NCBI GenBank assembly: GCA_033439295.1
Contig: JAVTLE010000005.1
Location: forward strand, 2,158,501-2,222,500
Direction: 5' to 3'
Source: Deuterostichococcus epilithicus
Lineage: Eukaryota > Chlorophyta > Trebouxiophyceae > Prasiolales > Stichococcaceae
DNA: 64,000 nt
Within the stretch, counting starts at the first letter, position 1, and each line of letters opens with the position of its first letter. The position numbers and the translations under genes are program-made. Below are positions 1,376 through 55,848 of the stretch, in pieces. The notes below the pieces were generated by a model. That model saw only the letters and a list, made by a program, of their open reading frames with translations. It was not told where the DNA came from and ran no database searches.

Positions 1376-4055
1376 ATGCCGCCGGGGGGGGAGGCAATCG
1401 TGCAGCTCGACAGCAGGACCGCCGATGCGCAGGAGGTGTGGGCAACATGTGTGGCTCCCAGGAAGCCGGCCGTCCTGCTGAACAGTCTTGAGACCGCCGA
1501 CTTCAGCGGCCTGAAGCAATGGACGGACGCCTACCTCCGCAACAAAGTGGTGAGGCACCGTTTCACGCACAGCACTTGCCGCTGGCGACAGCCTGATGCA
1601 CAGCTGATAGCAGTAGTGCATCCCTGTGCATTTTTCGCGGCATTCATTGGCGGCATGACCGTGTGAGACGTCAGGGCCGATGATTGTAGGGCGCCGACGT
1701 GGCGGTCAAGGTGGAGGTGCGGCAGAGCAGCGCGGCCTCCTTCGGCCGCGGCGCCACGAAGGTCATGCCGTTCCGGCAGTTCCTGCGCCGCTTCGCAGCC
1801 GGCGACAGCAGCGTCTACATGACGGCGCAGAATGTGGGCGTTGCGCCGGACGGGCACCCGGAGCTCTTTGCGCCGCCCGTGACGCAGCTGCAGGACGAGG
1901 TGCCGCTTCAGCCGGTGGTCATGGGCGGCCTCATCCCGCAGCAGCTCAACTTGTGGATGGGGCACGCCATCGACGGTGCGTGCTGCGGGCTGCGGGCTGC
2001 CTTTCTGGTCTGTAGACCATTTCTGTCCCAGAGCAATGCTGGCCCACCAGAGCAGCTGCAACTCAACCCGACGGCCAGCCGTCACTGACTGCAGGCGCAT
2101 CTAGCGGCCTGCATCATGACATACATGACAACCTGTACCTGCTGCTGCGCGGGCGCAAGCGCTTCCGGCTGTACCCGCCGGAGCTGGCACGGGACATGTA
2201 CAGCCACGGCCGCATCGCCAGGATCCACCCCAACGGCCGCATCGTCTACGCGGGCCAGGCAAGCGCTCTACGCGCGCTCCTCCCACTTCAGAAATCCTGG
2301 CAAGGGGCGCCATGTGAAGCACAAGCAGCTTGTGTCCCGTTGCTGCTGCGATGCTGCCTGCAGCATGCTTACTCTCAGAGCTTACAACTGATGCACAGGG
2401 CATGGTGAATGCGGACGGCAGCGGCGCAGACGAGGTGGCGGAGTGGCGCGCCCGCTGCGCAGCCGAGGCGGGCGTCGCCGCCGCCCAGGCCGCCGTGCAG
2501 CGCGGCGAGAAGGTGAAATCCCTGAGCTTTGCTCCGCTACACTATTTCGCCATCCCCACAGAGCCTCAGCAGCATGTCAGCTGTGTGCGTGGCTGGCGTC
2601 TGCCGGGCCGTCCAGATGCACGTGTACAGTGCATGCCCGCGCAGGACGCCGATGGCGCGCACTCTCCTCACGGAGCCTCAGCAACTGCTTCTGCAAGGCA
2701 GGCGTTGCAATCATGGAGGTTGCGATGCCACGCAGGGCGCCAATGCGCAACTGGAGGCAGCAGAGGCGCGGCTGGACGACGTCTTGGACAGCGCACTGGA
2801 CCTGGAGATGGGCGACTTCAACGATTTTGGTGGCAGTGACGGTGCGCTTTGGCCGGCCCCTCCCCCTCCCCCACCCCCCACCCCCCACCCTGCATGAGGG
2901 CTGGGCGGCGGCTTTGCTGGTCTTGGGAGCCCAGTTCTAGCACAGCTCCTCCAGGGTTACCTGCAGGTCTTGATGCAGATCAAACCCTGAGGCGTGTTAC
3001 CTTGGTGGCTGATACACTGCACTGGTGTCCGGCAGACTCAGCCGACGATGAGCGTGCGCCGCAGCGGCAGCGCAGCACAGGTGGGCTGCTCGCCGTCCTC
3101 GGCTTGAGCAAGAGCATGCCGGAGTGCCCCACCGCCCCTCCATTCGTTCAGATTGTGGCAGGCATTGAGCATGACCATCATGTGTCGGCGCAGAAGCAAG
3201 CCACGAACCGGACAGCTTCAGTCGTGTGGACCTGGCCGGCATGACGGATGCAGCAATCCGCCATCACTTTCCCAAGTTCCCGGTGAGCAAGCCAGATCGA
3301 TGCAGCAGCAGCAGTGCTCCGTGAAAAGGTGTGCTGTGCAGTGTACTGCTGGCAGATGGTGACACGGTTCTGAACGATGCAGGGGCGCAGGGCGGCCATT
3401 GAGGTCGACCTCTGTGCCGGCCAGGCGCTGTACCTGCCTGCTGGCTGGTTCCACGAGGTGAGCTTGCAACCGCCAAGGGGTTCGTTCGCGCGCCCCAGCA
3501 AGAAGTTCCAGATGTAGGTCGGTGTTAAGCAAGTGCTTGGCATGCCGCTTGGCATGCGGGCTGTGTCGAGAGACAGTCTCGCATGAGGCTGTCCACATCG
3601 TGTTTTCCTTTGAAGTGCTGCACATCCGCAAACAGGTGACCTCATTCAGTGCGGGCGAGCAACCGGGGCACATGGCCTTCAGCTACTGGTTCTTCCCGCC
3701 TGACAACCTTGACAGCGAGGCCGGCTTTGCCAAGCCCTACCTGTCCGGCTTCTGGGGGCAGTTCTGGGCCGCCCGTCTGCCGCAGCTGCGCCCACGGGAG
3801 CGGCAGCAGCGGCAGCCGCAGAATCAGCAGCAGCAACCGCAGCGGCAGCATGGCGTGGTGCAGACCCTGGAGACGCAGGCGCTGCCTGGCGGTGCTGCTG
3901 GTGGGGAAGAGCAGGCGGGCAGGCGGCAGCGCCGGGCCAGCAGCAGAGCGCCTTCGCTCGCCTGGTGGCATCTGAGGCGGCGGCGGCCCACCTGGCTGGC
4001 GTACGGCAGGCGGCGCCACCAGCTGCACCTGCTGAAGCCCCGGGCATGGCGATGA
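1376..4055 (+). CDS. JmjC/cupin-fold Fe(II), 2-oxoglutarate oxygenase
   Basis: A probable protein hydroxylase or demethylase of the JmjC (cupin_8) type. Nine exons join in phase: 1376–1549, 1690–1975, 2095–2258, 2399–2512, 2736–2841, 3036–3080, 3194–3282, 3383–3457 and 3636–4055, giving about 490 residues. MGGLIPQQLNLWMG precedes the iron site. HHDIHDNLYLLLRGRKRF contains the HxD iron ligands, RLYPP follows, and the third iron ligand is the His of LYLPAGWFHEVTS. EPDSFSRVDL is the usual inter-strand motif. The pattern resembles JMJD7 and plant JMJ31-type proteins. An insert of acidic and Ala-rich sequence (exons 4–6) splits the domain, and the C-terminus is a Gln/Arg-rich tail. Intron 3 has a GC donor (2259). 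The substrate cannot be inferred. The start at 1376 is preferred over in-frame ATGs at 1244 and 1268, which add low-complexity residues. Confidence 0.88.
2857..2890. repeat. C-rich homopolymer-like tract in a JmjC intron
   Basis: A run made almost only of C with single T or A breaks lies just inside intron 5 of the JmjC gene. It is a simple repeat. Confidence 0.8.
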
Positions 4056-4404
4056 CACAGCCCTGTCGGATGGGGGCGCCGCCTTTGACAACTGCTCGTG
4101 GCGAAATGCAGCAACCTCGTGGTCGGTACAGTGAACACGAGGGGCTGTGCAGGTGCGACCGGAGTCATGAATTCAATTCCAAAGTATGCAACCACACTAC
4201 CTCAGCATGGCTCAAGCTGACGATTGTATGTGGATGGTGCAGGGCGGCAATTACAGTGTCAGTGTCAACAAAGTGTGGCCTGGGCGCTGCTGGCCGGCTC
4301 AGTGCTGGAATTCTGGCGGGAACCGCCGCTTCATCTCACGGCGGTGTCCCTTGCGTCGCGATGGTGGTGCCGTTTGTCTGACTGCCGTTTTGACTACCGC
4401 CGTC
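4056..4404. other. Gap between the JmjC gene and the repeat block
   Basis: Probable 3' UTR of the JmjC gene followed by spacer. No gene or clear signal is visible. Confidence 0.5.
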
Positions 4405-5990
4405 TGACTGCTACTTTTCATTTTGCTCCTTAACTGAAAGCATACTTTCGAGTGAACCTGCTACTTTTTATTTTGCTCGTTAAATGAAAGCATACTTTCG
4501 AAGTGACCCTTTCATTTGGTTCTGGCTCCTTGGCGACTGCCTCCGAAGGAACGACGGCGTGTCGCTCTTTGCTCTTGCGTTGACACTGAAAGCGGCTCCT
4601 TTCAAAGTGACCCTGCTACTTTTGATTTGGCTCCTTAAGTGAAAGCACACTTTCAAAGCCAACCGGCCCCTTGCGACCTGGCTCCTTCACTGAAGGCTTT
4701 GCCCTTGAAAGTATGACGACGCATAAGGAGCAAATTGAAAAGTAGCAGTCGCGCTTTCCATTTCATTTTTTTTCACAGCGACTCTGCTACTTGATATCTG
4801 GCTCCTTATGCGACATCATGCTTTCAAGATGACCTTGCTACTTCATGTTTTGCTCCTTATGCGACATTATACTTTCAAAGTGACCCTGCTACTTTTTTGG
4901 CTCCTTAAGTGAAAGCATACTTTCAAAGCCAACCCCCCCTTTCGATCTGGCTCCTTTACTGAAGGCTTTGCCCTTGAAAGTATGACGTCGCAGAAGGAGC
5001 AAATTAAAAGCAAGTAGCAGTCGCGCTATCCATTTCCAAAAAAAAATCACAGCGACTCTGCTACTGATATCTGGCTCCTTATGCGACATTGTGCTTTCAA
5101 GGCGAGTCCGTCTCTTTCGATCTGGCTGCTTGAAAGAAAGCTTTGCTTTAAAAAATGCCGTCGCAAGGAGCAAAATATATTAAAATATATATAATTGGCG
5201 TCCAAGTAGCACGTGCGGCGGGGAGGGCAGCGGCGCCTGTGGAGCCACCCCTCCAACGAGCACCGTGTCGCGATGCAGGCGGCTGATGCAGCGACGATGC
5301 AGGGGACAGGTGCCACACCGGTCACGCGAAGGGCCGAAAGAAAGGAAGCAGTGGCGTCTAGCCAATCAGCTCCTTTTGACACCCTTCATTCGTTCGTTCC
5401 CATTCCGGCTGCCTGGTGGAGGCGCGACCAGGTGGAAGCAGCTTATTCTTTTCCTTCGGTACCTTTCGGAAGCCCGCCGTGCTCCTTTCAAGCGAAACGG
5501 TCGCCTTCTTTAAACAACCAGATCGAAAAAAGTAGAAGGTCGCAGATCGAAAGACGCGGATTCACTTTCAAAGCATAATGTGCATAAGGAGCCAAATTAG
5601 ATAGCAGGGTCACTTGGCTGCATAATGTCGCATAAGCAGCAAAATATAAAGTAGCAGGGTCGCTTTGAGAGCATAATGTCGCACAAGGAGCAAATTACAA
5701 AGTAGCAGGGTCGCTCTGAAAAAATCTCGAAATTGAAAGCGACCCTGCTACTTTTCATTTTGCTCCTTATGCGACGTTATACTTTCAAGGGCAAAGCCTT
5801 CAATCAAGGAGCCAGATCGAAAGGGGCGGGTTGGCTTTGAAAGTATGCTTTCACTTAAGGAGCCAGATCAAAAGTAGCAGGGTCACTTTGAAAGGGACCC
5901 GCTTTCAGTATCAACGCAAGAGCAACGAGCGACACGCCGTCGTTCCTTCGGAGGCAGTCGCCAAGGATCCAGAACGAAATGAACAGCCTG
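4405..5990. repeat. Fold-back element built of ~50-bp monomers (copy 1)
   Basis: The block consists of monomers of about 50 bp that contain AGTAGCAGGGTCGCTTTGA, then CATAATGTCGCATAAGGAGC. On the left side (4405–5170) they run mostly in reverse complement, and on the right (5500–5985) mostly forward, so the two ends form a long inverted repeat. Matching outer arms are 4505–4690 and 5810–5985; both can be read as the same peptide start ([12 protein letters not shown]) on opposite strands. Left-arm composite units recur at 4609 and 4882 (about 273 bp). Small hairpin junctions, where AGTAGCAG(G)GTCGC meets its own reverse complement, occur near 4765, 5040 and 5727. The centre (about 5180–5500) is not repetitive. 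I see no transposase, so this is a non-autonomous fold-back or satellite-like element. The peptides it can encode are not genes. Confidence 0.85.
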
Positions 5991-6573
5991 TGGACGAGAG
6001 GATCCGACGGATGAATTGACTGCCGCCACATAAGTGGCGAGTCAGCGGCCCGCAGTCGTGCGGGCACTGCGCAGTGTGCACAAACCTACGGGCCCCGATT
6101 GCAGAAGAGCAGGAAGAAGAAGGGGAAAGCCAAACTAGGCGTGTCGACCACTACTCTGGCCTCTGGCAGAGCGCCAGGCAAAGTGTGACAAGTTACCCTG
6201 GGTCCGCCTGGGTCCGCCCAAGTCAAACTGGGTCGCGAAAGGAGCATTAGCATTCAAACCCTTTCAGGCAATTTGCCCATCGTGCCCCGCGACGATGACC
6301 CATTTCTCATCTGTTCAGCTCTCCCCTGGAACGCAGAACAAGCGTGGAACACTTGCAAATCATTGCAGATCCTTAGTGCTCAGGCAGATTGACAGACTCG
6401 GTCAAGCGTTGCGTCAGGATCGATCGTCGCTAGCCATCTGCAACTTTCCGAAACCGTCGCGCTTACTGAGCAGCTTCCGACACGGCATGTAAAGAGACTA
6501 CGGGGGCTGTTGCATACCCTGTACTGCTGTATGAGCCGAACGATGTGTCGGAACGCTGTCGTACACTGATTTG
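5991..6573. promoter_or_regulatory. Region upstream of PPK1
   Basis: Non-repetitive sequence between the fold-back block and the proposed PPK1 start. It should hold the PPK1 promoter and 5' UTR, but I recognise no motif. Short open frames here have no family resemblance. Confidence 0.4.
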
Positions 6574-9500
6574 ATGCACAGCTGCATGCGGCAGCACCTA
6601 ACAGCTGCATCTGGCAGCGGGGGACCGCAGACTCTGAAGCATGTAGCCATCGCACAATATGCAAGGCCCCGCAAGGTAAGGCTTGACGCATAACATTACA
6701 TGATGCAAGGACATGACGTGCCGCCAATGCTGCATCACTGCAGGGCCGCTGCGCAAGGAGTCCCAAGCTTCACCAAACTGTTGCGATCTGCCGTGTGCAG
6801 CAGGGCTGCGTCGCGCCGTTGCGGGCACAAGCCAAGCAGCCGCTGCGGGTCGAAGTCGACCGCATTCCGGTTGATGTGCTGGATGCGGGGGACGGCAGCA
6901 GTGGCAACGCGGCCCTGCTGGAAGGGACGGCCAACGGCACTGGCAGTCCGGCCCCATCAGCATCCTATGATGGAGACGCCAGCTCGGCATCCGAGGAGGA
7001 AGAGGAGGAGTGCGCCGAATGGTGCCTCCAGCCGACCTGCATGGTCGCGCCAACCCACCAGCAGACGCACATCCAGGCGGATGTGCAGGGCCTCAGCTTG
7101 GATGAGCTCTGCAGCGACGACAAGGTGTGCCATTGGTCAGCATCTGTTCAACGAGGTTGCAACGTTCAGATTGAGTTCTCCGAAATGCCCACACGCTTAG
7201 GTGTGCGGTCGTGGCTGATATGATGCAGCCGCAGGTGGTCGGATGAAGTCGACCTGGGAATGAATGAGGGAGGGGTGGCTGGCTCGCAGGTGTACAACGT
7301 CGAGCTGGCATGGCTGGCATTCAACTGGCGGGTACTGAGCCTGGCGACCTCGGTGCGGGCATCTGGCTGCGCTGAAAACTGCAATGTGCTTTCACAGTGC
7401 GTCGTGCCGGTCAGTTGGCAGGACAGCCAGCAGCCCACTGGTAGACAGGCACTGAGATCGCAGCCAACATGACTGCAGCGCGTGGCAACATCGTGGCGAC
7501 AACAACATCCGTGCTGTAGGGGAGTTCGTGTGTGATTTTGGCCAAAAAATATGCAGGAGGCGACGCCGCTGTACGAGCGGCTGCAGTTCCTGGCCATAAC
7601 GTCCAGCAACCTGGACGAGTTTTTCGCCAAGCGCGTGGGCGGCCTCATGCGGCAGGCGGCCGCGGGCGCCAAAAACCTCAAGACGCTGTCCAAGTGGCCG
7701 CCAGAGCAGCAGCTGGACATGGTCGCAAAGGTCCGTGGTTCTCACCCTGTCCTCTTGCTTACCTTCTCCTTCCAATCATTCAAACCTTGTCCTTTGGTTT
7801 CTCTTCCCTTGATCTTCCTCATGACAACCTGTGCACAGACTCAAAGAGCCCTTGTGCCGCCTGCGAGTCAGCAGCTGGCGTCTCAACACGATGCTACGTC
7901 TCACATAGCATGCTGGGCTTTGCGAACGGGGTAGCAGCCGCTGGCACATCTCCACCAAACATCAGCATCTGCGAGGTTCACTCATATCGTACGGGTTCGA
8001 CACACCCTCCACCACCTCAAACTTGTGGGCTGCTGCCTGCTGGCAGGAGGTGCGCACCATGGTTGCCGCGCAGACGGCAGCGCTGGAGCAGGAGGTCCTG
8101 CCGGCGCTGCGGTCACACGGCATCCACATCCTTACCTACTCCGAGCTCATAACCACGGGCGCTGACAGGTGACTCGCCTGAAGGCAGTGGCGGCTGGGCC
8201 AGGAACCGCCCTACAAGTTGTCGGAAAGCACCTCTTGCATGAAGACGACAGCGCACCCTGGAGGTGTGACGGGCGTGCCTGCCCAGGTGAACTGGATGCA
8301 CAATTCCCAGGCACATTGGTAGTTTGAGACGGCGCCCGCTGCGCCGCAGACTGAACAAGTACTTCCAGCGGGAGCTGGAGCTGCTGCTCACGCCCATCCG
8401 GCTTGATCCGGCACACCCCTTCCCGGTGAGGCAGCACCGGATGTTGTTCCACCGCTGCGGAACACGGCTGCTGCGCCACAGCATTCGCAGTCCTGCTGGA
8501 AGCCGTTCGAGCGCTTCGACCAGATGCTCAGGCGCAATGGTAAACGCCAAAGGAAGGACGGCAAAATCCATACAAGCCATGGAACAGACGACATCATGGC
8601 CACCAAGGACCATTTTGGATCGCAGTACCTGCCGTCGCAAAGCCTCAACCTGGCGGTCATCCTGGAGGACCCGCGGGCTGCCTCGGCAGACACACAGTAC
8701 GCCATCGTCAACATCCCAGCCAGCTTCTCGCGCTGGTACGAGGTCCCGGCGGCCGCCCGCGACAACGACACCTGGCAGCAGGTGGTGGCCTCCTGTGCAC
8801 TTCGCAGTGCTGAAGATTGCAAACGCGGCTGTGAACAAGATGTTGGCGTCAACGGTGCTGAGGGACCATCGAGGCTGCTCACCTCCAGTCCAGAAATGGC
8901 TAGTTTTCCAGCGCTTGACTTGCCCATGTGCACTGTTGGGAATGATGGAAGGGAACCCTGCACTGCCGGCAGGCGTACATGCCGGTGGAGCGCATCATCA
9001 AGGAGAACCTCGGCCAGCTGTTTGGCGGCGCTATCATCAAGGTGCGCTTGCAGCACACACGGCTCTCAGCCGCAACTGGCACCCTCGACTCCTCGCGTGT
9101 CCAGTATCGCTGACGCACCTGATTTCACAATGAGGGTGCCGCTGTCTTGCCTGCTCGGATCACGGCCAGTTTTGACCTACATTCTCCAACGAAACTCATG
9201 GTCGCACTGCTCCTGCTGCACAGGGCGTGCACACGTTCCGGGTGACGCGCAATGCGGACCTGGAGCGGCATGAGGATGAGGCGGAGGACCTCCTCGACAT
9301 GGTGTCCGACGAGCTTCGCGAGCGCAGGTGCTCGTTCCACGCATACTTTGTCGCCTCAGCCTTGTTGCTGTGGTGCGTGGTGGCGCGGCGCATGCTGGAC
9401 ACGACGAGCTGCGCGGGTGCCGGAGCTGTTTCTGTGGATTCACGAGCTATTCTGTCGGGGGGCTCTGCTGTGGACATGCCCTTTCTGCCCGCCCACAGAC

Positions 9501-12500
9501 TGCCTGTCCCGCCAGCCTGACGGACTTTTGCGCATGACGGCGCTAGACAGAGTGGCTGCTGGGAGCTCCTTAAGTGACGGCCGCTTTGAGAGCATAATGT
9601 CGCATAAGGAGCCAGTTAATAAGTAGCAGGGTCGCTGTGAAAGAAAATCGAAATTGAAAGCGACCCTGCTACTTTTCATTTTGCTCCGTATGCGACGTCA
9701 TACTTTCAAGGGCAAAGCCTTCAATATGCCAGATCACAAGGGGCGGGTTGGCTTTGAATGTATGCTTTCACTTAAGGAGCCAGAAGTAGCAGGGTCACTT
9801 TTATTCAAGTACAATGTCGCATAAGGAGCAAAATATAAAGTAGCAGGGTCGCTTTGAGAGCATAATGTCGCATAAGGAGCCAGATATCAAGTAGCAGGGT
9901 CGCTTTGAAATGGGAAGCGCGACTGCTACTTTTCATTTTGCCCTTATGCGACGTCATACTTTATAGGGCAAAGCCTTGAATCAAGGAGCCGGATCGAAAG
10001 GGGCAGGTTGACTATTAAAGTAGGCTGTCACTTAAGGAGCCAATCCAAAAGTAGCAGGGTCACCTTTATTCGAGGTACAACGTCGCATAAGGAGCAAAAT
10101 GTAAAGTAGCAGGGTCGCTTTAAGAGCATAATGTTGCATAACGGGCTATTCTGTGGGGGGGCCTCTGCTGTGGACATGCCCTTTCTGCCCGCCCACAGAC
10201 TGCCTGTCCCGCCAACCTGGCAGACTGTTGCGCATGACGGCGCTAGACAGAGTGGCTGCTGGGAGCGCGCGGCTGTCACGATGTGCGGGGACGGCCAGCC
10301 ACGCCGTCACTGGCCGAGGGCAGCGGCCCACTGCCGGCTCCTCATCGCTTCAGGATGTGTTGGCGACGGTCCATCCCATGTAGGTCTGCAGGTTCCAGAT
10401 CCACAAAATAATGGTTTGCCATCCACCGGCAGGGTGACCACAGCAACACCTGACAGGGAAGTGATGTTCCCTGCGCCAGGTTTGCTCCTTTCGTGCGGCT
10501 GGAGGTGGAGGCGGGCATGCCGGACGAGCTGATAGAGCTGCTGACGCAGGTGAGCTCCCAGCTAAGCTCCGACTAGCCGTAGGCTCCAGCCAGGTGTCAC
10601 GAAGACCGGCGTCCAGACGGGACGGGGTGCACTCGGCGAGGCAGAACAGTCGGGCAGGGTGCAGCATGTCCAATGACCTGCTTTCCCAGAGGCGCTCCGG
10701 GTGGGCTCTTGTTCCAAGATGGAAATGGTGAAGCTCGACTTTGAACTCGAGCCGCTGATCGCAGGAGCTCAACCTGGAGGCCGCGCAGAATGTTCTGCAG
10801 ATAGACTGCCTGCTGGACCTCGCCGATCTGTCCAAGCTGCCGGTGAGGCGGCACCCCCGCCTGGTGCACAGAGACAACTAGAGTGTTTCTGTGCACTGTT
10901 CTCTTCACTGTTTGGCTGATCTTGTTTAGACAGGACAGGCGCCGCACGATCACCTTGCCTGCAGCTATCAGACCACTCCCCAACGGAATCCATGGGTCCA
11001 CTCAAGCCGCAACGCAGCGGGCTGGTGCCTCTTCAGGCAGCTGCTACGAGGCTGGTGTACTTCCTGCAGCCAACCTCTCGTTCGTTTCAAAGGCTGTCCA
11101 CCTCGTGTCGCGCAGGTGGAGAAGCGCAAGCTTGACAGCGCGCTGTGCTACTCGACCTGGAAGCCGCGCGAGCACCCGCGCCTGCTCATCCCGCTGCAAC
11201 AGGTATGTTTGCAGGTTTGCTGTGTTGCGGTGCTGCACTGTTGACTATGGGTATGCGCCGCGGCTGGCCTGCAAGGCAGCTTGGCTTGTGCGCACCCACT
11301 GCATACGTTCGTGCTTCCATCCTGTAAGGCAGACGTCTTGTCCAGAATCAGGGCCTCACAGCTAGGTACCATGGCGCTGTGCAACATTGCAGAAGCGGCT
11401 GCGCAAGCGGCGCCGGTGGGCAGGCAACCGCTGGAGCAACATGCGCATGCGCTCCATCTTCAGTGTCATCCGCGACGGCGACGTGCTCGTGCAGGCGTGT
11501 GCCACGTGCTGTTGCGGCTTTGACAATCGCCGCAGCATCACGCCCCCTTGCCGAGCATGCAGTCGCCATGCGCACAGCATGTCTGGTCTCGTGCAGCGGT
11601 TGCCATCCCTGCTGAGTTCTCCTGGCTGCGGCTCCTGCACCCTGTTGCGGAGAACCACCGGAAACATGCAGACTGTGCTGCCCCGCAGCACCCCTATCAC
11701 AGCTTTGCGTTCTCAACGCAACGCTTCGTGGAGGAGGCGGCAGCGGACAAGTCAGTGGCGGCCATCAAGGCCACCCTGTACCGCACCAACTCGGACAGCC
11801 CCATCATCACCGCGCTCCTCAAGGCGGCAGAGCAGGGCAAGCAGGTGCGTCGGCCCACTACCCAACTGCACATGGCTCGCGAGCGGCGTCAGTGCTGATC
11901 CGTTTCGAAACCCAGCAAGGCGCACACCGACACGTCTCGGCGCAATTATGTGCCTACGATGCAACATGCCGGCGAAGTCTCCTTGTGGTCTCCATTGCAC
12001 GACCTTGCTGATGCCTGCCTCCAGAGAGGACCCGCAGTCGGGCTCTCACGCCCTGAACCCTAAACCCTAAACCCCACTGCAGGTGTCGGTGCTGGTGGAG
12101 CTGAAGGCACGTTTTGACGAGGCGCGCAACGTGGGCTACGCGCAGCGGCTGGAGGACGCCGGCTGCAATGTCGCCTACGGCCTCATCGGCCTCAAGACGC
12201 ACTGCAAGCTCATGCTGGTGGGGCTGGCCGTCTGGCCTGCTTCCGAACCCAAGGGCCTGCTTCCGGACCTCGGTCGGCTGACTGCCCGGCCCGGAGTGAC
12301 GCCTGGCGTTGCTGTCTGCGCGCACCAGCGGTGGAATGCAGACAATGGATGATGCGAAGAAGGGGCTTGCGCAGAGAAGGCCAATCCTTCCGGATGCCAT
12401 TTGCAAAGTCTGGGCTGCACCTCTTCACACGTGACATGCACTCGCAGGTGGTGCGGCGCGAACGAGATGCGCCGCATGGCCTGCGCACGTACGTCCACAT

Positions 12501-15110
12501 CGGCACAGGCAACTACAACCCCAGCACCGCGGCGGTGTACACCGACCTGGGCCTGCTGTCGTGCGACCCGGCGCTGTGCAACGACGTCGTCGACATCTTC
12601 AAGCACCTCACGGGTGTGTGTCAGTGGTGCAACAGTGATCTGCAGCCTGCTGCGTTCCGCCTCAGGGCCGAAGTTTTTTCTATCCGTGGTTGCGGGTCTG
12701 TCTGGCGCCGCATTTCCAAGCATTCGCCTGTGTACACATCCGGTGTGCGAGCTGCAACCCTCCGGTCTCGAGGGATGCGAGGCTCATGTCCGTCCTCCTA
12801 CTGTCAGGATGTTGCTGCCGACGGCCAGCGCATGGTCTGCAGCATGTGACGTTGGATGTCCAAATCGTCTTGCTGCACGCGTGACGCGCAGGGCTGCACG
12901 ACCAGACGGCGGTGGGCGGCTTCAGGCAGCTGCTGGTGGCCAACGAGTACATGCGCGACCAGTTCGAGGCGCTCATCGGCAACGAGGTGTCCAGCGCGGC
13001 ACACGGCCTCCCCGCCGCAGTCTGTGTCAAGGCGCGCCCAGTCACCGGAGCAGCAACTGTGGCACGCGTCTCATGCCAGTTTGCTGCAGGACAGGACTGC
13101 CAAGGAACTGTCTAGCGCGGCTCGCGACCTGCGCGGTGTGCATCGAATTGTGTTCTGCAGTCGCACCATGGCACGGCTGCTGCTTGCGTCAGCGGCGCCG
13201 CTCGGACCACACTGCAGGCTGGGCCTGTCAGCTCGGAAGGAAAGACATCAATTCCAGTGCCGTGCGCGCCGCGGCAGAGTGCCTGAACTCGATGGATGCA
13301 GCCCCCGACGATGCGCTGCTGCCGGCGCTGACTCCCGCTGAGATTGCAGGTCAACGGGCTGGACGACAGGACGCTGACGCGGCGGCTGTACGAGGCGGCA
13401 GCCAAGGGCGTACGCGTGGACGCCATTGTGCGCGGCATCTGCCGCCTGCGGGCTGGCGTGCCCGGCCTCGCTGAGAACGTGCGCCGCTGTGTTCCTCCTG
13501 GCTTGATCCTGGCTGTGCGCCCGCCGCAGCGCAGCCTGAAGCATGGATGCGCCGGCGATGAGATTGCAGCCGCCAGCTGGGGGATGCCTCCATGCGCATC
13601 AGTTTGCAGTGCAACGAGCTGTCCAGCCAACTGCGCTGACTGCCACGGTATGCAGAACGAACACAGTGAGGGCCACCAAGCTATGTCGTGACAGCGGTGC
13701 ACAGTCCTCCAGGCCTATCAATCGGATGGCGGCGTTCTGTCCAAATGCTGTTGCAGGTGCGGGTGGTGTCCATCGTGGGGCGATTCCTGGAGCACCACCG
13801 CATCTACTGCTTCCACAACCGCGGCCGTCCGCTTTACTTCATCGGCTCGGCCGACTGGATGAACCGCAACCTCATGAAGCGTGTGGAGGTTTGGCTCGTT
13901 TCTGAACAGATGCGAGTTACCTGTGCGATTGGTGCTGGTCAATATGCTGGCACAGTAATCTCGAACCATGCAAAGGAGGATGACGGCGGCAAGGCCTGCC
14001 GAGTCAAGTTCTCGAATAACCTAATCATAAACAGATCCTGGTGCACAATGGCAGACTCTGCCAGTCTCTCAGCACCTTGGCCAGTCTGCTGCCGCACGCG
14101 CCCACTCGAGACGCAGGAGCGTCGATGCCTGCAGGTGGCGGCGCCCATCACGCACCCGGCGCTGCAGGCGCAGCTGCGAGACATCCTGGCGCTGTGCCTC
14201 ACCGACGGCGTGGACGCCTGGGACATGCTGCCTGACGGCCGCTACAGGTGCTGCTCGACCTCAGCTCCTCGATTCTTCCACCCCTTTACTATTTGCCTCG
14301 CTTTAGCGGTTCTGAGCGCTCAGCCTGCCGCCGCCCTCCGTGTTCCACCAAGGCAGCAGCCACAGGTGCTCGTCCTCTTTTGCCCCTGTCCCACTTGCTC
14401 TCGAGCCATCAGCCTGCCGATGACCCCTCTGTCCAGCGCAAGACCGCTACAGGTCCAGCGTGACTCCTCTCTGTACGCTCTTCAGCCATCTCACACCGGT
14501 GCAGGCCCCTGCAGGTCTCACTCACGTTTGGCTCCTTTGCTGTGCTGCCTCTTCGCACCCGATCGAGCGCCAGCCTGGCACTATCCTCGCCACTCAGTCT
14601 GCCAAGCATGCCCTTTGTGCCGATGTCACGGTTGCTTTGCATTCCAATGCCAAGCCACGGCCTCCGGTATCACGTACCATCGCAAGGTCCTGGCAACCGC
14701 GGCTGTGGTGCCTGCAGCAAGCCGGCGCACCGCATCAGTGAGGCGCCGCTGTCGGCGCCGATGCTGGCCGAGGACGACGCCTACATCCGCCGCATCCAGG
14801 TGCTCGTCCCCACCTCCTGAACAGCTGCTCACCTGCTGACGCCGCTGCCGTTGCCTTGGGCTGTGCGTTGTGTGCGTCGCTGTCCTAGAGGCTGCATATT
14901 GCCGGGGCAAGCAGAAATAGTGCAGCAATTTCCGTGTGCGCTCACTTGCCTCGAGACTGGTGCTGAGCATTGCACCGGGTTGCTTCCGTGCTGCAGGAGC
15001 TGGGGGCGACGCAGGGATGCCAGGCAGCGGCGATGCGGGTCACCGATGTGGAGAGCAAGCACCTGCGTGGGCGCAAGCAGCACAAGAGCCTCCAGCTGGC
15101 GCCAACCTGA
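6574..15110 (+). CDS. PPK1: Polyphosphate kinase 1 (PPK1), 22 exons
   Basis: Makes inorganic polyphosphate from ATP through a phosphohistidine. Exons: 6574–6675, 6801–7126, 7235–7352, 7557–7730, 8047–8168, 8350–8425, 8626–8781, 8973–9041, 9224–9327, 10480–10549, 10765–10842, 11116–11202, 11393–11494, 11689–11844, 12083–12217, 12448–12613, 12892–13031, 13350–13478, 13757–13888, 14135–14247, 14718–14799 and 14997–15110 (about 916 residues; E. coli PPK1 has 688). [14 protein letters not shown] and [14 protein letters not shown] open the N domain. LKATLYRT-type, [25 protein letters not shown] (catalytic His), [49 protein letters not shown] (second active His) and [17 protein letters not shown] follow. 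About 140 extra N-terminal residues, partly acidic, may include an organelle signal. The first two exons are the least certain. Introns 12 and 16 have GC donors. Confidence 0.92.
9443..9568 (+). repeat. Left ~125-bp direct repeat flanking repeat-block copy 2
   Basis: From about GCTATTCTGT to GTGGCTGCTGGGAG this stretch is nearly identical to 10142–10266. Both lie in PPK1 intron 8. Confidence 0.85.
9569..10141. repeat. Fold-back element of ~50-bp monomers (copy 2) in PPK1 intron 8
   Basis: It has the same monomer family as 4405–5990. AGCAGGGTC starts recur at about 9624, 9788, 9842 and 9893, and hairpin junctions lie near 9645 and 9910. The 9620–9670 junction closely matches the one at 5704–5755. 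No coding capacity is seen. Confidence 0.85.
10142..10266 (+). repeat. Right ~125-bp direct repeat flanking repeat-block copy 2
   Basis: Partner of 9443–9568, with a few substitutions. It is much too long for a normal transposon target-site duplication. Confidence 0.85.
12051..12076 (+). repeat. Interstitial telomeric repeat (CCCTAAA type)
   Basis: One degenerate and two perfect CCCTAAA units, ending six bases before the splice-acceptor AG of PPK1 exon 15. CCCTAAA is the complement of TTTAGGG, the telomere unit of land plants and Chlorella-type algae. Confidence 0.85.
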
Positions 15111-22689: not shown

Positions 22690-25563
22690 TCAGCGGCGCC
22701 AGATGCTGCCGAGCAGGCGTCCCGCCTGCCCCGCCAGCCAGCCGACGGGCGCAAGCACCGGCACGTTGAACCCCTGCGCGACGCCGCCCTCGCGCGCCCC
22801 GCCTGCGGCCGGCTGCTGNCCCTGCGGCGCCCCGTCGGACTGCGCCGCCGACTGCGCATCTGCCTGCTCCTGCTGCACCGGCATCGCCGTGTGCTGCTGC
22901 GCGCACGGCGTGGATGGCACGGAGGAGGTGCCGCGGCCCACCACCTGTCCGGCGGGGGTGAGCGTCGCCAGGGAGGCAAGGCCCGGCGACTGACGCTGCT
23001 GGTGCGGCGCAGGCTGCTGCGGCGCCTGAGGTGCGGGTACGGCCGGTAAAGCTGCCGGCTCCTCCTACGGTATACCCGCAGAGGGCAGGTCAAGAGCATC
23101 TGATGGGCGCACGCTCTGTGCAGAGGAGCGGATCAGCGACCTACAGGTGCTGCCGTGGTGCTTGCGTGCCTGAAGCGCGGGCGAGTGGACAGAGTAGACT
23201 CACCCCCTGCGCCTGCGAGCGCCGAGCTGCAGCGCCTGCCTCCTCCGATGGGCGCCGCGCCTCGCACCGGGCTGCCGCCGACCGTGCGCCTGCGCGCTGT
23301 CTGCTGCTGCGCCGCACGGCACCGCGCCCATTGCTGGACCCGCCGCTGATGGGGATGGCCAGGCGTGAGGCGCCGCCAGAGGGCGCCCGCTGCTGCATGC
23401 CGGTGCCGGTGCTGCCCCCGCCGCCCGGGCGGCACCCAGCTCCGCTGCCGTGGCCGGCGGCGGCAGGCGGGGCGGCGGGAACCCCGCCAGGGCAGCACCG
23501 CTGCCGGCGCCGCCGCCGCTCTGTCGCCGCTCCATCCGCTGCCGGACGCGCCGCTCGTTCCGATCGTTGGCGATGCCAGCGGTCCTGCTGCGGCCTGCTT
23601 GCCCACTGGCGGCAGCGGCGCGCCGGATGTTCTCCACAGCCGCACGGGCCGCGGGGTGGATCTGGGCGTCCAGACGCTGCCGCTGTGCGCTAGCCGCAGC
23701 CGCCGCCGCCCGCTGCTGCTGTTCCGGCTGCTGCTCCTGCTGCTGCTGCTGCCGGCGTCGCTGCTGTGGTTGCTGCCCTTGGCCTGAACATAAGCAGAGA
23801 CGCCACTGGCCTGCATTGTCTGCTGCCAACAGGTTGCAGAAAAAACGTGCTGGCTGAGAGTTCGTTGTGCTTCGCGTCATGCTGATGCGTCACCACGGAC
23901 AATGAGAATGACCAACAGCACTTGAGCGGACCTGGGGGCGGCTGATAACCAAAGCCAGCGGCGGCCAGTGCGGCCGTGATGCGGCTCGAGAAGTCGCCCG
24001 CGGTGGCACCGCCAAAGGCGTCGCCAAAGTCCAGCCACACGTCGCCGTCGACGCCAACGCCGCCGCCCATGCCGCCGCCGCCGCCGGGCATACCATCGTC
24101 GCCAGGCATGGGCGCGGGCTGGGGCTGGACGCGGTGGTTGGGGTCGGGCGGCAGCTGACTTCTGCAGACTGGGCACGTGTTGTGCTGCAGGACAAGCATA
24201 GAGTCTGCTCAGGGTTGGGTGTGGCAAGAACTGACTGCAGCACTTGATGGCGTGGGAATGTGCGGTATCGGCACACCTCATGTGCTTTTCCTGAGTTGGC
24301 ACCGGCGGCTGAGTCGGCACGATGTATGTCTATGCGGGTGCACCATCTGCCAGATGCCGGGCGCAGCCATTTGCGAAGGCTTTGCAGAGAAGGAGCGGAA
24401 GCAGGGAAGTGAGAAGGAGTTTCACACCTGCTCCAGCCAGGGCATGATGCATTCCTCGTGGAAGCAGTGGCGGCAAGGCAGCTGCACCACCTCACCGCCC
24501 GCTTGGTACTCCTCGCGACACACCTGCCATCGGGAACTGAAGCTGTTCTGTCGAGGAAAGGACCCGTGGCTTCACATGCCACCGCGGCTGAACGGCGGCG
24601 GCAGCGGCAACAGATGACAGAGGTCGACAGCCCCCAAAGCATGCGGGCTCGGTGTGCATGCTCGGTGTGCATGCTGAGCTGAAGCCCACCGTGCAGGCGT
24701 CCCCCGCCTTGCAGGCAGCGCGCGCCGGCGCGCTGGGGGGGCTGCCAGCGGATGCGCAGCCTGCCGCGGCCTGGCCGCCTATCGCTATGCTGCCGGCGCC
24801 GCTGCCGCTGACAGACGCTGCGGTTCGCGCCGCGCGGGCCGCCTCGGAAGGAGTCGGCACCTTGAGGCGGGGCAGGGACTGGCGGGCGTCTGGTGCGGTC
24901 GGCACAAACACGGGTTGATGCTGCTCTGCTAGACTGGCGAGCAGCTCCTCGAAGCTCTGGCCTCCCACAAAGTCGCCCATGCTGAATCCCCCCCTGCATA
25001 GCACATGCATGCGCATCAGCATGTGACCAGCCGGTTTTTCGCCTTGGAAACCTGTTGTCGAGCAGCAGGCGTGATTAGCCACGATGCACAGGTTCACAGG
25101 TGTGGGTCGCCCCTGCAAACCTTTCTAAGCGTCAAGCCCTGTGCACCCGCATCCTATCAGTCTTGAGGGTTCAGTCAACCTAGGTCTGCTCGGACAACGC
25201 CTGTAAGCGAACAGGAAGACGTACTGGGTGCCAAAGCCCGGATGGGTGAAGTGGCCATTGCCGCCAGCCCCATGAGGCCCGAATGACTGCAGCAGGCTGT
25301 TGAAGAAGCCCTGTGGGTTGCCGGAATCGAAACCATTGCCGCCGGCTGCTGGGTTGCTGCCAGCGCCGTTGCCGAACACGCCAAACGCCGCGTCAAAGCC
25401 GCCGTCCTCGCCGCCCATGCCGCCCATGTTGACCGGCAGGACGTGGGTCGACACGTGCATGTGCAGCTGCTGGCCGCCGGGCATGGTGAAGGTATGGTGG
25501 TGCATGTGCGTGCCCGGCTGCTGCTGTGCGTCGTCCTGCTGTGCATCGTCCTGCTGTGCATCG

Positions 25564-25601
<38 letters not shown>

Positions 25602-26076
25602 GTTCTGCTGCTGCTGCTGCCGCTGCCGCCGCTGCTGTGCCGACTGCGCTGTCTGTGGCTGTCGCTGCGGCTGTGCGTCAGTGACCGTCTGCTGCTGCGC
25701 TGTGTGAGCCTGCAGCGTGAATCGTTGTCATGTCAAATCTACTGTTTGCACCAGCAAGGAACGCTGGGATGCGCTCAACTGGCTGCAGCTTGTATGTGCG
25801 CACAAGAACGCACATGTGGGGGCTGTAGTCTCACGATATGGATTCAGTGCATTCCAGTGAACACAAAATATCTCTACACACTCGTGTGAATGTGCGACAG
25901 AATGATGGCGACAGCGAGCGTTCGGAGCGAGGAGAAGCCATCGGCCACCCTGGTACCTGTGACACCATCTCCACGAAGTCGCTCGAGCACAAGGCACAGA
26001 TGCGCTGGCCTTCAGCGTCTCGTCGCTCTGGGCTGGCGGGCTGGGCCTGGCTGCATGCGTAACAATATAGCTCCAT
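22690..26076 (-). CDS. RING-H2 E3 ubiquitin ligase with N-terminal zinc ribbon and polyQ tract
   Basis: A likely ubiquitin ligase of the RNF126/BCA2-like plan. Exons: 26076–25957, 25709–25225, 24993–24690, 24523–24428, 24184–23932, one starting at 23783, and a last one ending at the stop 22692–22690. [10 protein letters not shown] plus ICALCSSDF gives a CxxC...CxxC zinc ribbon. Exon 2 carries a polyglutamine run and three QDDA copies, then Gly/Asn-rich sequence. CTVCREEYQ (the join of exons 3 and 4), [16 protein letters not shown] and [10 protein letters not shown] make a complete C3H2C3 RING. Distal to the RING are Met/Gly- and Gln/Ala/Arg-rich regions. The last coding stretch ends [18 protein letters not shown]. 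Exon borders between about 23400 and 22990 are unresolved, and the N at 22819 falls in this part. Confidence 0.82.
25542..25635. repeat. CAG/CTG trinucleotide tract coding for polyQ
   Basis: A CTG run on the plus strand, read as CAG on the minus strand, encodes about 11 consecutive Gln and more nearby in exon 2 of the RING gene. Beside it are three tandem copies coding QDDA. Confidence 0.9.
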
Positions 26077-51643: not shown

Positions 51644-52056
51644 ATGTGTGAGTGGACAGATGACAAGTTTCATGGCGTCAGGTGTTTCCGACTAACATTC
51701 AATGCCTTGGCTCGGCAACAGCGTTCCTGAAGTGTGTCAGTGCGGGCCTGCTGAGTGTGCAGATGCTTGGCGCTCTCAATTGCCGGCCATGCCTCACGCC
51801 CGAGGGGGGAGATCCGGCTACAACGACCAGGGCCCTGACTGCCCGCCCCGCCCTTCCAGAGAAGACCTTTCTGAGCTGCTTTGGATGGTATTTCTCTGAG
51901 CTGCAAGAGCGGCTGACAAAACAAAGCTCGCCACCGAGTCCGAGCCTCCTGTCGTCAACAGCGGCTGAGACTGTGCCGCCCGCCAAGGCGAGCATCCAGC
52001 CCGCCTCCGCATCACCAATGGCACCGCACCAGGTGCCGCTCGAGCCTCCGCCTGCG

Positions 52057-52130
52057 CATCAGCCGTACTGGGCCAGATGACGCTTGAGCTTCCCCGCCTG
52101 CTTCAGCACGGAGCGCTTGCTGGCGTCGCA
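52057..52130 (-). pseudogene. Duplicated fragment of argininosuccinate lyase 3' coding end
   Basis: CATCAGCCGTACTGGGCCAG, then CGCTTGAGCTTCC and CAGCACGGAGCGCTTGCTGG, repeat the sequence at 52153–52226 with a few changes. It corresponds to the last ~22 codons (SVLEQAEKLKRHLAQYD region) placed just beyond the real stop. A shorter third copy of the stop region lies near 52030–52064. Confidence 0.8.
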
Positions 52131-52157
52131 GATCTTGCTTGAGCCTTCGAATGCGCA

Positions 52158-55848
<3,691 letters not shown>

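What the first reader, a model, noticed from the sequence alone, without database searches (positions are those of the whole stretch)
4405..5990. A fold-back repeat family of ~50-bp monomers that alternate in orientation
The sequence shows monomers of about 50 bp arranged head-to-head, with hairpin junctions (near 4765, 5040, 5727) and outer arms that form a long inverted repeat around a unique ~320-bp core. Left-arm composite units recur at ~273 bp. No transposase is present. I do not recognise the family. It could be a non-autonomous fold-back transposon or a satellite that makes hairpin RNA.
Basis: partly seen in the sequence, partly recalled or inferred. Interest (0 to 1): 0.75.

Follow-up and report, generated by a model that had tools for sequence, protein, structure and literature searches.

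The report
Low-copy fold-back repeat in green alga
A rare family of DNA repeats that can fold into long hairpins occurs in noncoding DNA at four known places in a green alga's genome; it looks like old wreckage of a fold-back mobile element, but how it moved and whether it makes RNA are not shown.

Summary
Element A (window 4405-5990) is built of ~50-bp monomers in blocks of alternating orientation (unit ~270 bp: one monomer against four). Its arms, 4511-4907 and 5585-5983, are 88.9% inverted-identical around a single-copy core; the self-complementarity score is 675 against at most 41 in 100 shuffles. The host is a green alga (46.8 Mb). The family was found at four loci: A; B (window 9566-10141, in a polyphosphate-kinase intron between ~125-bp direct repeats); and C and D on another contig. 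A and D share a ~90-bp cap at both ends, and cap searches find these four ends only. B and C are capless arrays. The layout resembles fold-back elements such as Drosophila Tetris. No partner element was found, C and D show no target duplication, and A has one weak, offset 12-bp candidate. I call it a fold-back-like family, probably relics; mobility is inferred. A hairpin-RNA role is not excluded: folding is extreme and the genome holds Piwi and RNase III domain fragments. But arm substitutions show no robust bias towards keeping RNA pairs, and two pattern scans found no match outside the family.

The parts
4408..4507 (+). Two outer beta-like monomers, outside the palindrome
   Evidence: palindrome starts at 4511
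4508..4605 (+). Left cap (terminal unit)
   Evidence: 94% match to the right cap and 78% to the right end of D
4613..4748 (+). Left arm, outer unit: beta+ (4613-4662), f+ (4670-4699), alpha- (4699-4748)
4699..4833 (.). Junction hairpin 1 (alpha- against delta+)
   Evidence: MFE -58.9 on the plus strand
4784..5020 (+). Left arm, inner unit: delta+, gamma+, beta+, f+, alpha-
4968..5107 (.). Junction hairpin 2
   Evidence: MFE -58.3 on the plus strand
5058..5176 (+). Degenerate partial unit
5199..5540 (.). Monomer-free core, single-copy in the genome search
5561..5708 (-). Right arm, inner part: three minus-strand monomers
5659..5794 (.). Junction hairpin 3 (delta- against alpha+)
   Evidence: MFE -73.5 on the plus strand
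5745..5880 (-). Right arm, outer unit: alpha+ (5745-5794), f-, beta- (5831-5880)
5888..5989 (-). Right cap
9442..9566 (+). Left copy of the ~125-bp direct repeat that brackets B
9566..10141 (.). Locus B: capless array of about two composite units, in a polyphosphate-kinase intron (about 9328-10479)
   Evidence: exons flanking it give one continuous Pfam match
10141..10266 (+). Right copy of the ~125-bp direct repeat, 119 of 125 aligned positions identical

Best explanation
A is one of two complete members (A and D) of a low-copy, apparently non-coding, fold-back-like element family; B and C are capless array fragments of it. Shown: a discrete unit with the same ~90-bp cap at both ends at two unrelated loci; internal arrays of ~50-bp monomers with a shared higher-order order; a near-palindromic whole; four loci outside recognised coding sequence. 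Inferred: it was dispersed as DNA by a transposase supplied in trans that recognised caps or monomers; arrays grew and shrank by unequal exchange; arms within an element were kept alike by gene conversion or fold-back copying. No living partner was found, so these are probably relics.
For: The same cap at four ends of two elements and nowhere else in two searches. Caps of A and D are 79-82% identical while their monomers are about 58-62% identical, as expected if the ends matter most. Flanking genes differ between A and D. Composite unit order is shared by A, B and C. The layout of cap, repeat array and middle core parallels the TIR flanking domain, tandem repeats and middle domain of Tetris, which also has few complete copies and lacks ORFs and a known partner (PMC4079207, sections read). 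At A an 11-of-12 direct repeat (4390-4401 and 6016-6027) was reached in 2 of 200 shuffles.
Against: No exact flanking repeat of 7 bp or more within 25 bp of the ends of A, C or D; the 6-bp ones are at shuffle level. In the 12-mer scan C and D are at chance (81, 187 and 171 of 200 shuffles reach the observed value), and the candidate at A lies 4 and 26 bp outside the repeat and is the best of five comparisons. No partner element. D has no unique core. Very low copy number. Arms are more alike within than between elements, which plain transposition of an old palindrome does not explain. B is bracketed by ~125-bp repeats, far longer than a transposase would make.
Confidence: 0.5

Rival explanations
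1. Hairpin-RNA loci: the elements are transcribed with neighbouring genes (downstream of stop codons, or in an intron) and cut by a Dicer-like enzyme, giving small RNAs or lowering the host mRNA, as reported for hairpins in introns and UTRs of Chlamydomonas.
For: Folding 11 to 36 standard deviations below 24 shuffles at all four loci. A, C and D lie within about 20 to 350 bp of a stop codon, B in an intron. Piwi and RNase III domain pieces exist. Some stem windows are conserved at 0.93-0.97 between loci while the loop falls to 0.42. Chlamydomonas precedent: PMC4817775 (abstract and one section read).
Against: No robust excess of pair-keeping substitutions: G-U 20 against A-C 40 on the plus strand, p = 0.013 with one scoring, but p = 0.07-0.08 with three others, and 16 against 19 in eight local hairpins. 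Other stem windows are only 0.68-0.75 conserved. Seven of seven locus pairs have alpha less diverged than the other stem parts, but only one has p < 0.05. Two pattern scans with up to 3 mismatches give no match outside the family (22 of 22 and 18 of 18 inside it), so no near-perfect target of those two stretches. No Rfam match.
Confidence: 0.2
2. Transposase-free spread: hairpin-prone repeat DNA is captured at staggered breaks and copied in, and the palindrome is rebuilt at each site by fold-back synthesis.
For: ~125-bp direct repeats abut array B, 119 of 125 positions identical, and were found nowhere else. No clear target duplications at C and D. Caps are 92-96% alike within and 79-82% between elements.
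Against: Only one of four loci has the long repeat. A cap at both ends of both complete elements suggests defined ends. Gene conversion explains arm likeness as well.
Confidence: 0.2
3. Assembly artefact (false palindrome).
For: Long palindromes are prone to misassembly (general knowledge).
Against: Arms of A differ at 44 of 396 aligned positions and those of D at 67 of 389, and the architecture with matching caps occurs at D on another contig.
Confidence: 0.03

Closest known systems
Tetris, a foldback transposon of Drosophila virilis (PMC4079207; abstract and sections 10 and 17 read)
   Same: Long terminal inverted repeats made of an outer flanking domain and internal tandem repeats, a non-coding middle part, few complete copies, repeat arrays also outside complete copies, no partner known.
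   Different: Tetris repeats are ~220 bp in tandem and complete copies have 8-9-bp target duplications; here monomers are ~50 bp and flip orientation within each unit, and no clear target duplication was found.
Mutator-like elements with multiple long terminal inverted repeats in plants (PMC3310237; abstract read)
   Same: Terminal inverted repeats multiplied in tandem.
   Different: No Mutator-type end, target duplication or transposase was shown here; Mutator profiles were not searched genome-wide.
Hairpin precursors in introns and UTRs of Chlamydomonas reinhardtii (PMC4817775; abstract and section 10 read)
   Same: Long hairpin-forming sequence in an intron of, or close downstream of, protein genes of a green alga.
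   Different: Expression and Dicer-like processing were measured there; nothing of the kind is known for these loci.

Membership tests
Foldback DNA transposons (FB, Tetris, Galileo type) | Long inverted repeats with internal repeat arrays | tested here: met
Foldback DNA transposons (FB, Tetris, Galileo type) | Defined, shared ends at dispersed copies | tested here: met
   Cap at both ends of A and D; only two complete copies; B and C lack caps
Foldback DNA transposons (FB, Tetris, Galileo type) | Target-site duplication of about 8-10 bp | tested here: inconclusive
   None at C and D; at A one 11-of-12 candidate, 4 and 26 bp off the ends, 2 of 200 shuffles; B has ~125-bp repeats instead
Foldback DNA transposons (FB, Tetris, Galileo type) | Autonomous partner with the same ends | tested here: not met
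   Cap searches find only the four ends of A and D. Not strictly required: Tetris has none known either
Foldback DNA transposons (FB, Tetris, Galileo type) | Actual mobility (empty sites, polymorphism) | not testable with these tools
   No relative's genome is held
Hairpin RNA (miRNA or siRNA precursor) | Stable hairpin | tested here: met
Hairpin RNA (miRNA or siRNA precursor) | Pairing kept by selection | tested here: inconclusive
   result depends on alignment scoring; local hairpins show no bias
Hairpin RNA (miRNA or siRNA precursor) | Transcription and Dicer processing | not testable with these tools
   No RNA reads available
Satellite DNA | High copy number in long arrays | tested here: not met
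   Four loci, about 4.3 kb in all

The most novel reading that the evidence does not exclude
The family spreads without a transposase: hairpin-prone repeat DNA is captured at long staggered breaks, leaving ~125-bp flanking duplications as at B, and at each new site the palindrome is rebuilt by fold-back copying, which would explain arms that are nearly alike within, but not between, elements.
Probability: 0.15. Interest if true: 0.6.

Novelty: new variant of a known kind. Interest (0 to 1): 0.38.

Why it matters
If these are fold-back elements, they add a green-algal case in which the internal repeats themselves flip orientation in a fixed order, so that the element is made of hairpins inside a palindrome. 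If transcribed, they would be ready-made double-stranded RNA next to metabolic genes. The long duplication around B is an unusual trace of how such an array entered a gene.

Tried and rejected
IMG/VR scanned with a monomer pattern and a cap pattern: 0 matches each. GTDB genomes scanned with the monomer 18-mer: 6 single matches in unrelated bacteria; about 15 are expected by chance (my estimate), so they were not followed. Rfam: no match in the window at gathering scores. ARAGORN: no tRNA.

Selection for RNA pairing, by G-U against A-C mismatches between arms: p = 0.013 with one scoring, 0.07-0.08 with three others, no bias in eight local hairpins; not used as evidence. Special conservation of the alpha arm: same direction in seven of seven locus pairs, p < 0.05 in one, pairs not independent; not used as evidence. 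A PDB search with the polyphosphate-kinase exon pair found nothing; Pfam settled it. A gapless cap pattern scan found only the two caps of A, because those of D carry an indel; two searches found all four. An exact-match scan for target duplications missed the imperfect candidate at A, which I had seen by eye and then tested.

Paper searches on fold-back elements and green algae, foldback elements in general, small-RNA hairpins in Chlorella and inverted higher-order satellites listed no description of this family. Apart from the papers named under Closest known systems I read passages only of PMC5511227 and PMC7994812, and listings otherwise.

Full report
What is there. The window lies in a 46.8-Mb genome of 21 contigs. 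Element A (window 4405-5990) consists of monomers of about 50 bp found with a profile on both strands. The left arm reads cap, beta+, f+, alpha-, then delta+, gamma+, beta+, f+, alpha-, then a degenerate partial unit and a monomer-free core (about 5199-5540). The right arm is three minus-strand monomers, then alpha+, f-, beta-, cap. The composite unit is thus one monomer in one orientation against four (one short) in the other, and recurs at 269-272 bp. Greek letters are my labels for subtypes in the monomer tree; the tree rests on about 50 columns and its branches are only a guide.

More than chance. The best self-reverse-complement alignment scores 675; 100 dinucleotide shuffles and 35 other windows of that length in the 64 kb reach at most 41. 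Arms 4511-4907 and 5585-5983 agree at 352 of 396 aligned positions. The plus-strand folding energy is 32.6 standard deviations below 24 shuffles. The two outermost left monomers (4408-4507) are outside the palindrome.

Where else. A whole-genome DNA search finds the family at A, at B (window 9566-10141), at C (C19 near 2.270 Mb; L009 about 4680-5485) and at D (C19 near 1.801 Mb; L010 about 3800-5165). That tool gives lower bounds. Two pattern scans with up to 3 mismatches put 22 of 22 matches of a 23-mer in these four loci and 18 of 18 of a 21-mer in A, B and C (reversed-pattern controls 0 and 1). More diverged copies could still be missed. Together the four loci hold about 4.3 kb.

Anatomy of the others. 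D is a second palindrome, arms 322 of 389 aligned positions identical, made almost wholly of monomers that are about 58-62% like those of A (group means). It keeps the pattern of one or more forward monomers followed by a reverse one and has the same cap at both ends. Caps are 96% (A) and 92% (D) identical within an element and 79-82% between elements; cap searches find these four ends only. B and C are arrays of composite units, alpha+ and then minus-strand monomers, without caps. B lies in an intron: the exons on either side join into one continuous Pfam polyphosphate-kinase match, with GT and AG at the edges. It is bracketed by direct repeats of about 125 bp, 119 of 125 aligned positions identical, found only there.

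Gene setting. A begins about 350 bp after the stop codon of a Cupin_8 gene on the same strand (Pfam on upstream exons; that the ORF ending at 4052 is its last exon is my reading from recalled family features) and lies upstream of the polyphosphate-kinase gene. D begins about 20-35 bp after the stop codon of a gene with FAD- and NAD-binding oxidoreductase domains and ends about 225-255 bp before the probable start codon of a phosphomannomutase gene. C ends about 300 bp past the stop codon of a glycosyltransferase gene on the other strand, and a chlorophyll a/b-binding gene lies on its other side. Whether any locus is inside a transcript is not known; such positions are common in compact genomes.

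Mechanism. One cap shared by both ends of two elements at unrelated loci argues for a discrete unit that was dispersed, and the layout corresponds to the flanking, repeat and middle domains described for the foldback element Tetris. Against a plain transposon reading: no partner with the same ends; no exact flanking repeat of 7 bp or more within 25 bp of the ends of A, C or D; in a scan for imperfect 12-mers in 60-bp flanks, C and D are at chance; and arms are more alike within than between elements. At A an 11-of-12 repeat (4390-4401 and 6016-6027) is reached by 2 of 200 shuffles, but it is the best of five comparisons and lies 4 and 26 bp off the ends. I therefore say that it is built like a foldback element and do not file it as one. 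The ~125-bp repeat around B would fit capture of array DNA at a long staggered break, so a transposase-free history is kept as a serious rival.

RNA reading. All four loci fold far better than shuffles. Some junction-stem windows are 0.93-0.97 identical between loci, others 0.68-0.75, and the loop falls to 0.42; indels make the loop alignment uncertain, and gene conversion between inverted monomers could give the same pattern. The genome has Piwi-domain pieces, the best with one TAA in its frame (1 of 10 ORFs scanned hit Piwi, below the curated cut-off), and RNase III-domain pieces, two of them about 4 kb apart on one strand (3 of 10 ORFs scanned, none with helicase or PAZ). Chlamydomonas DCL3 also lacks PAZ. 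Mismatches between arms give no robust sign of selection for RNA pairs: 20 G-U against 40 A-C with one scoring (p = 0.013), 27-31 against 43-48 with three others (p = 0.07-0.08), and 16 against 19 in eight local hairpins. The RNA role is possible, not supported.

Verdict. A real and striking structure. The best reading is a small family of fold-back-like relics in a green alga, of moderate interest, with an unexplained long duplication at one copy. The paper searches run here listed no description of this family.

Noticed in passing
window 9442-9566 and 10141-10266: A direct repeat of about 125 bp (119 of 125 aligned positions identical) brackets array B inside a polyphosphate-kinase intron; found only at these two places.
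   Followed up: partly
window about 7540-12850, + strand: Intron-containing gene with polyphosphate kinase N-terminal, middle and C-terminal domains.
   Followed up: partly
window about 1690-4055, + strand: Cupin_8 (JmjC-like) gene upstream of element A.
   Followed up: partly
window 52038-52228: Tandem repeat of 99 bp, 1.9 copies, a multiple of three and so perhaps coding.
   Followed up: no
window 25521-25637: A 15-bp array next to a CTG-type triplet run.
   Followed up: no
L063 (C19:1129500-1139400): RNase III domain pieces about 4 kb apart on one strand, a Dicer-like candidate; no helicase or PAZ hit in the 10 ORFs scanned.
   Followed up: partly
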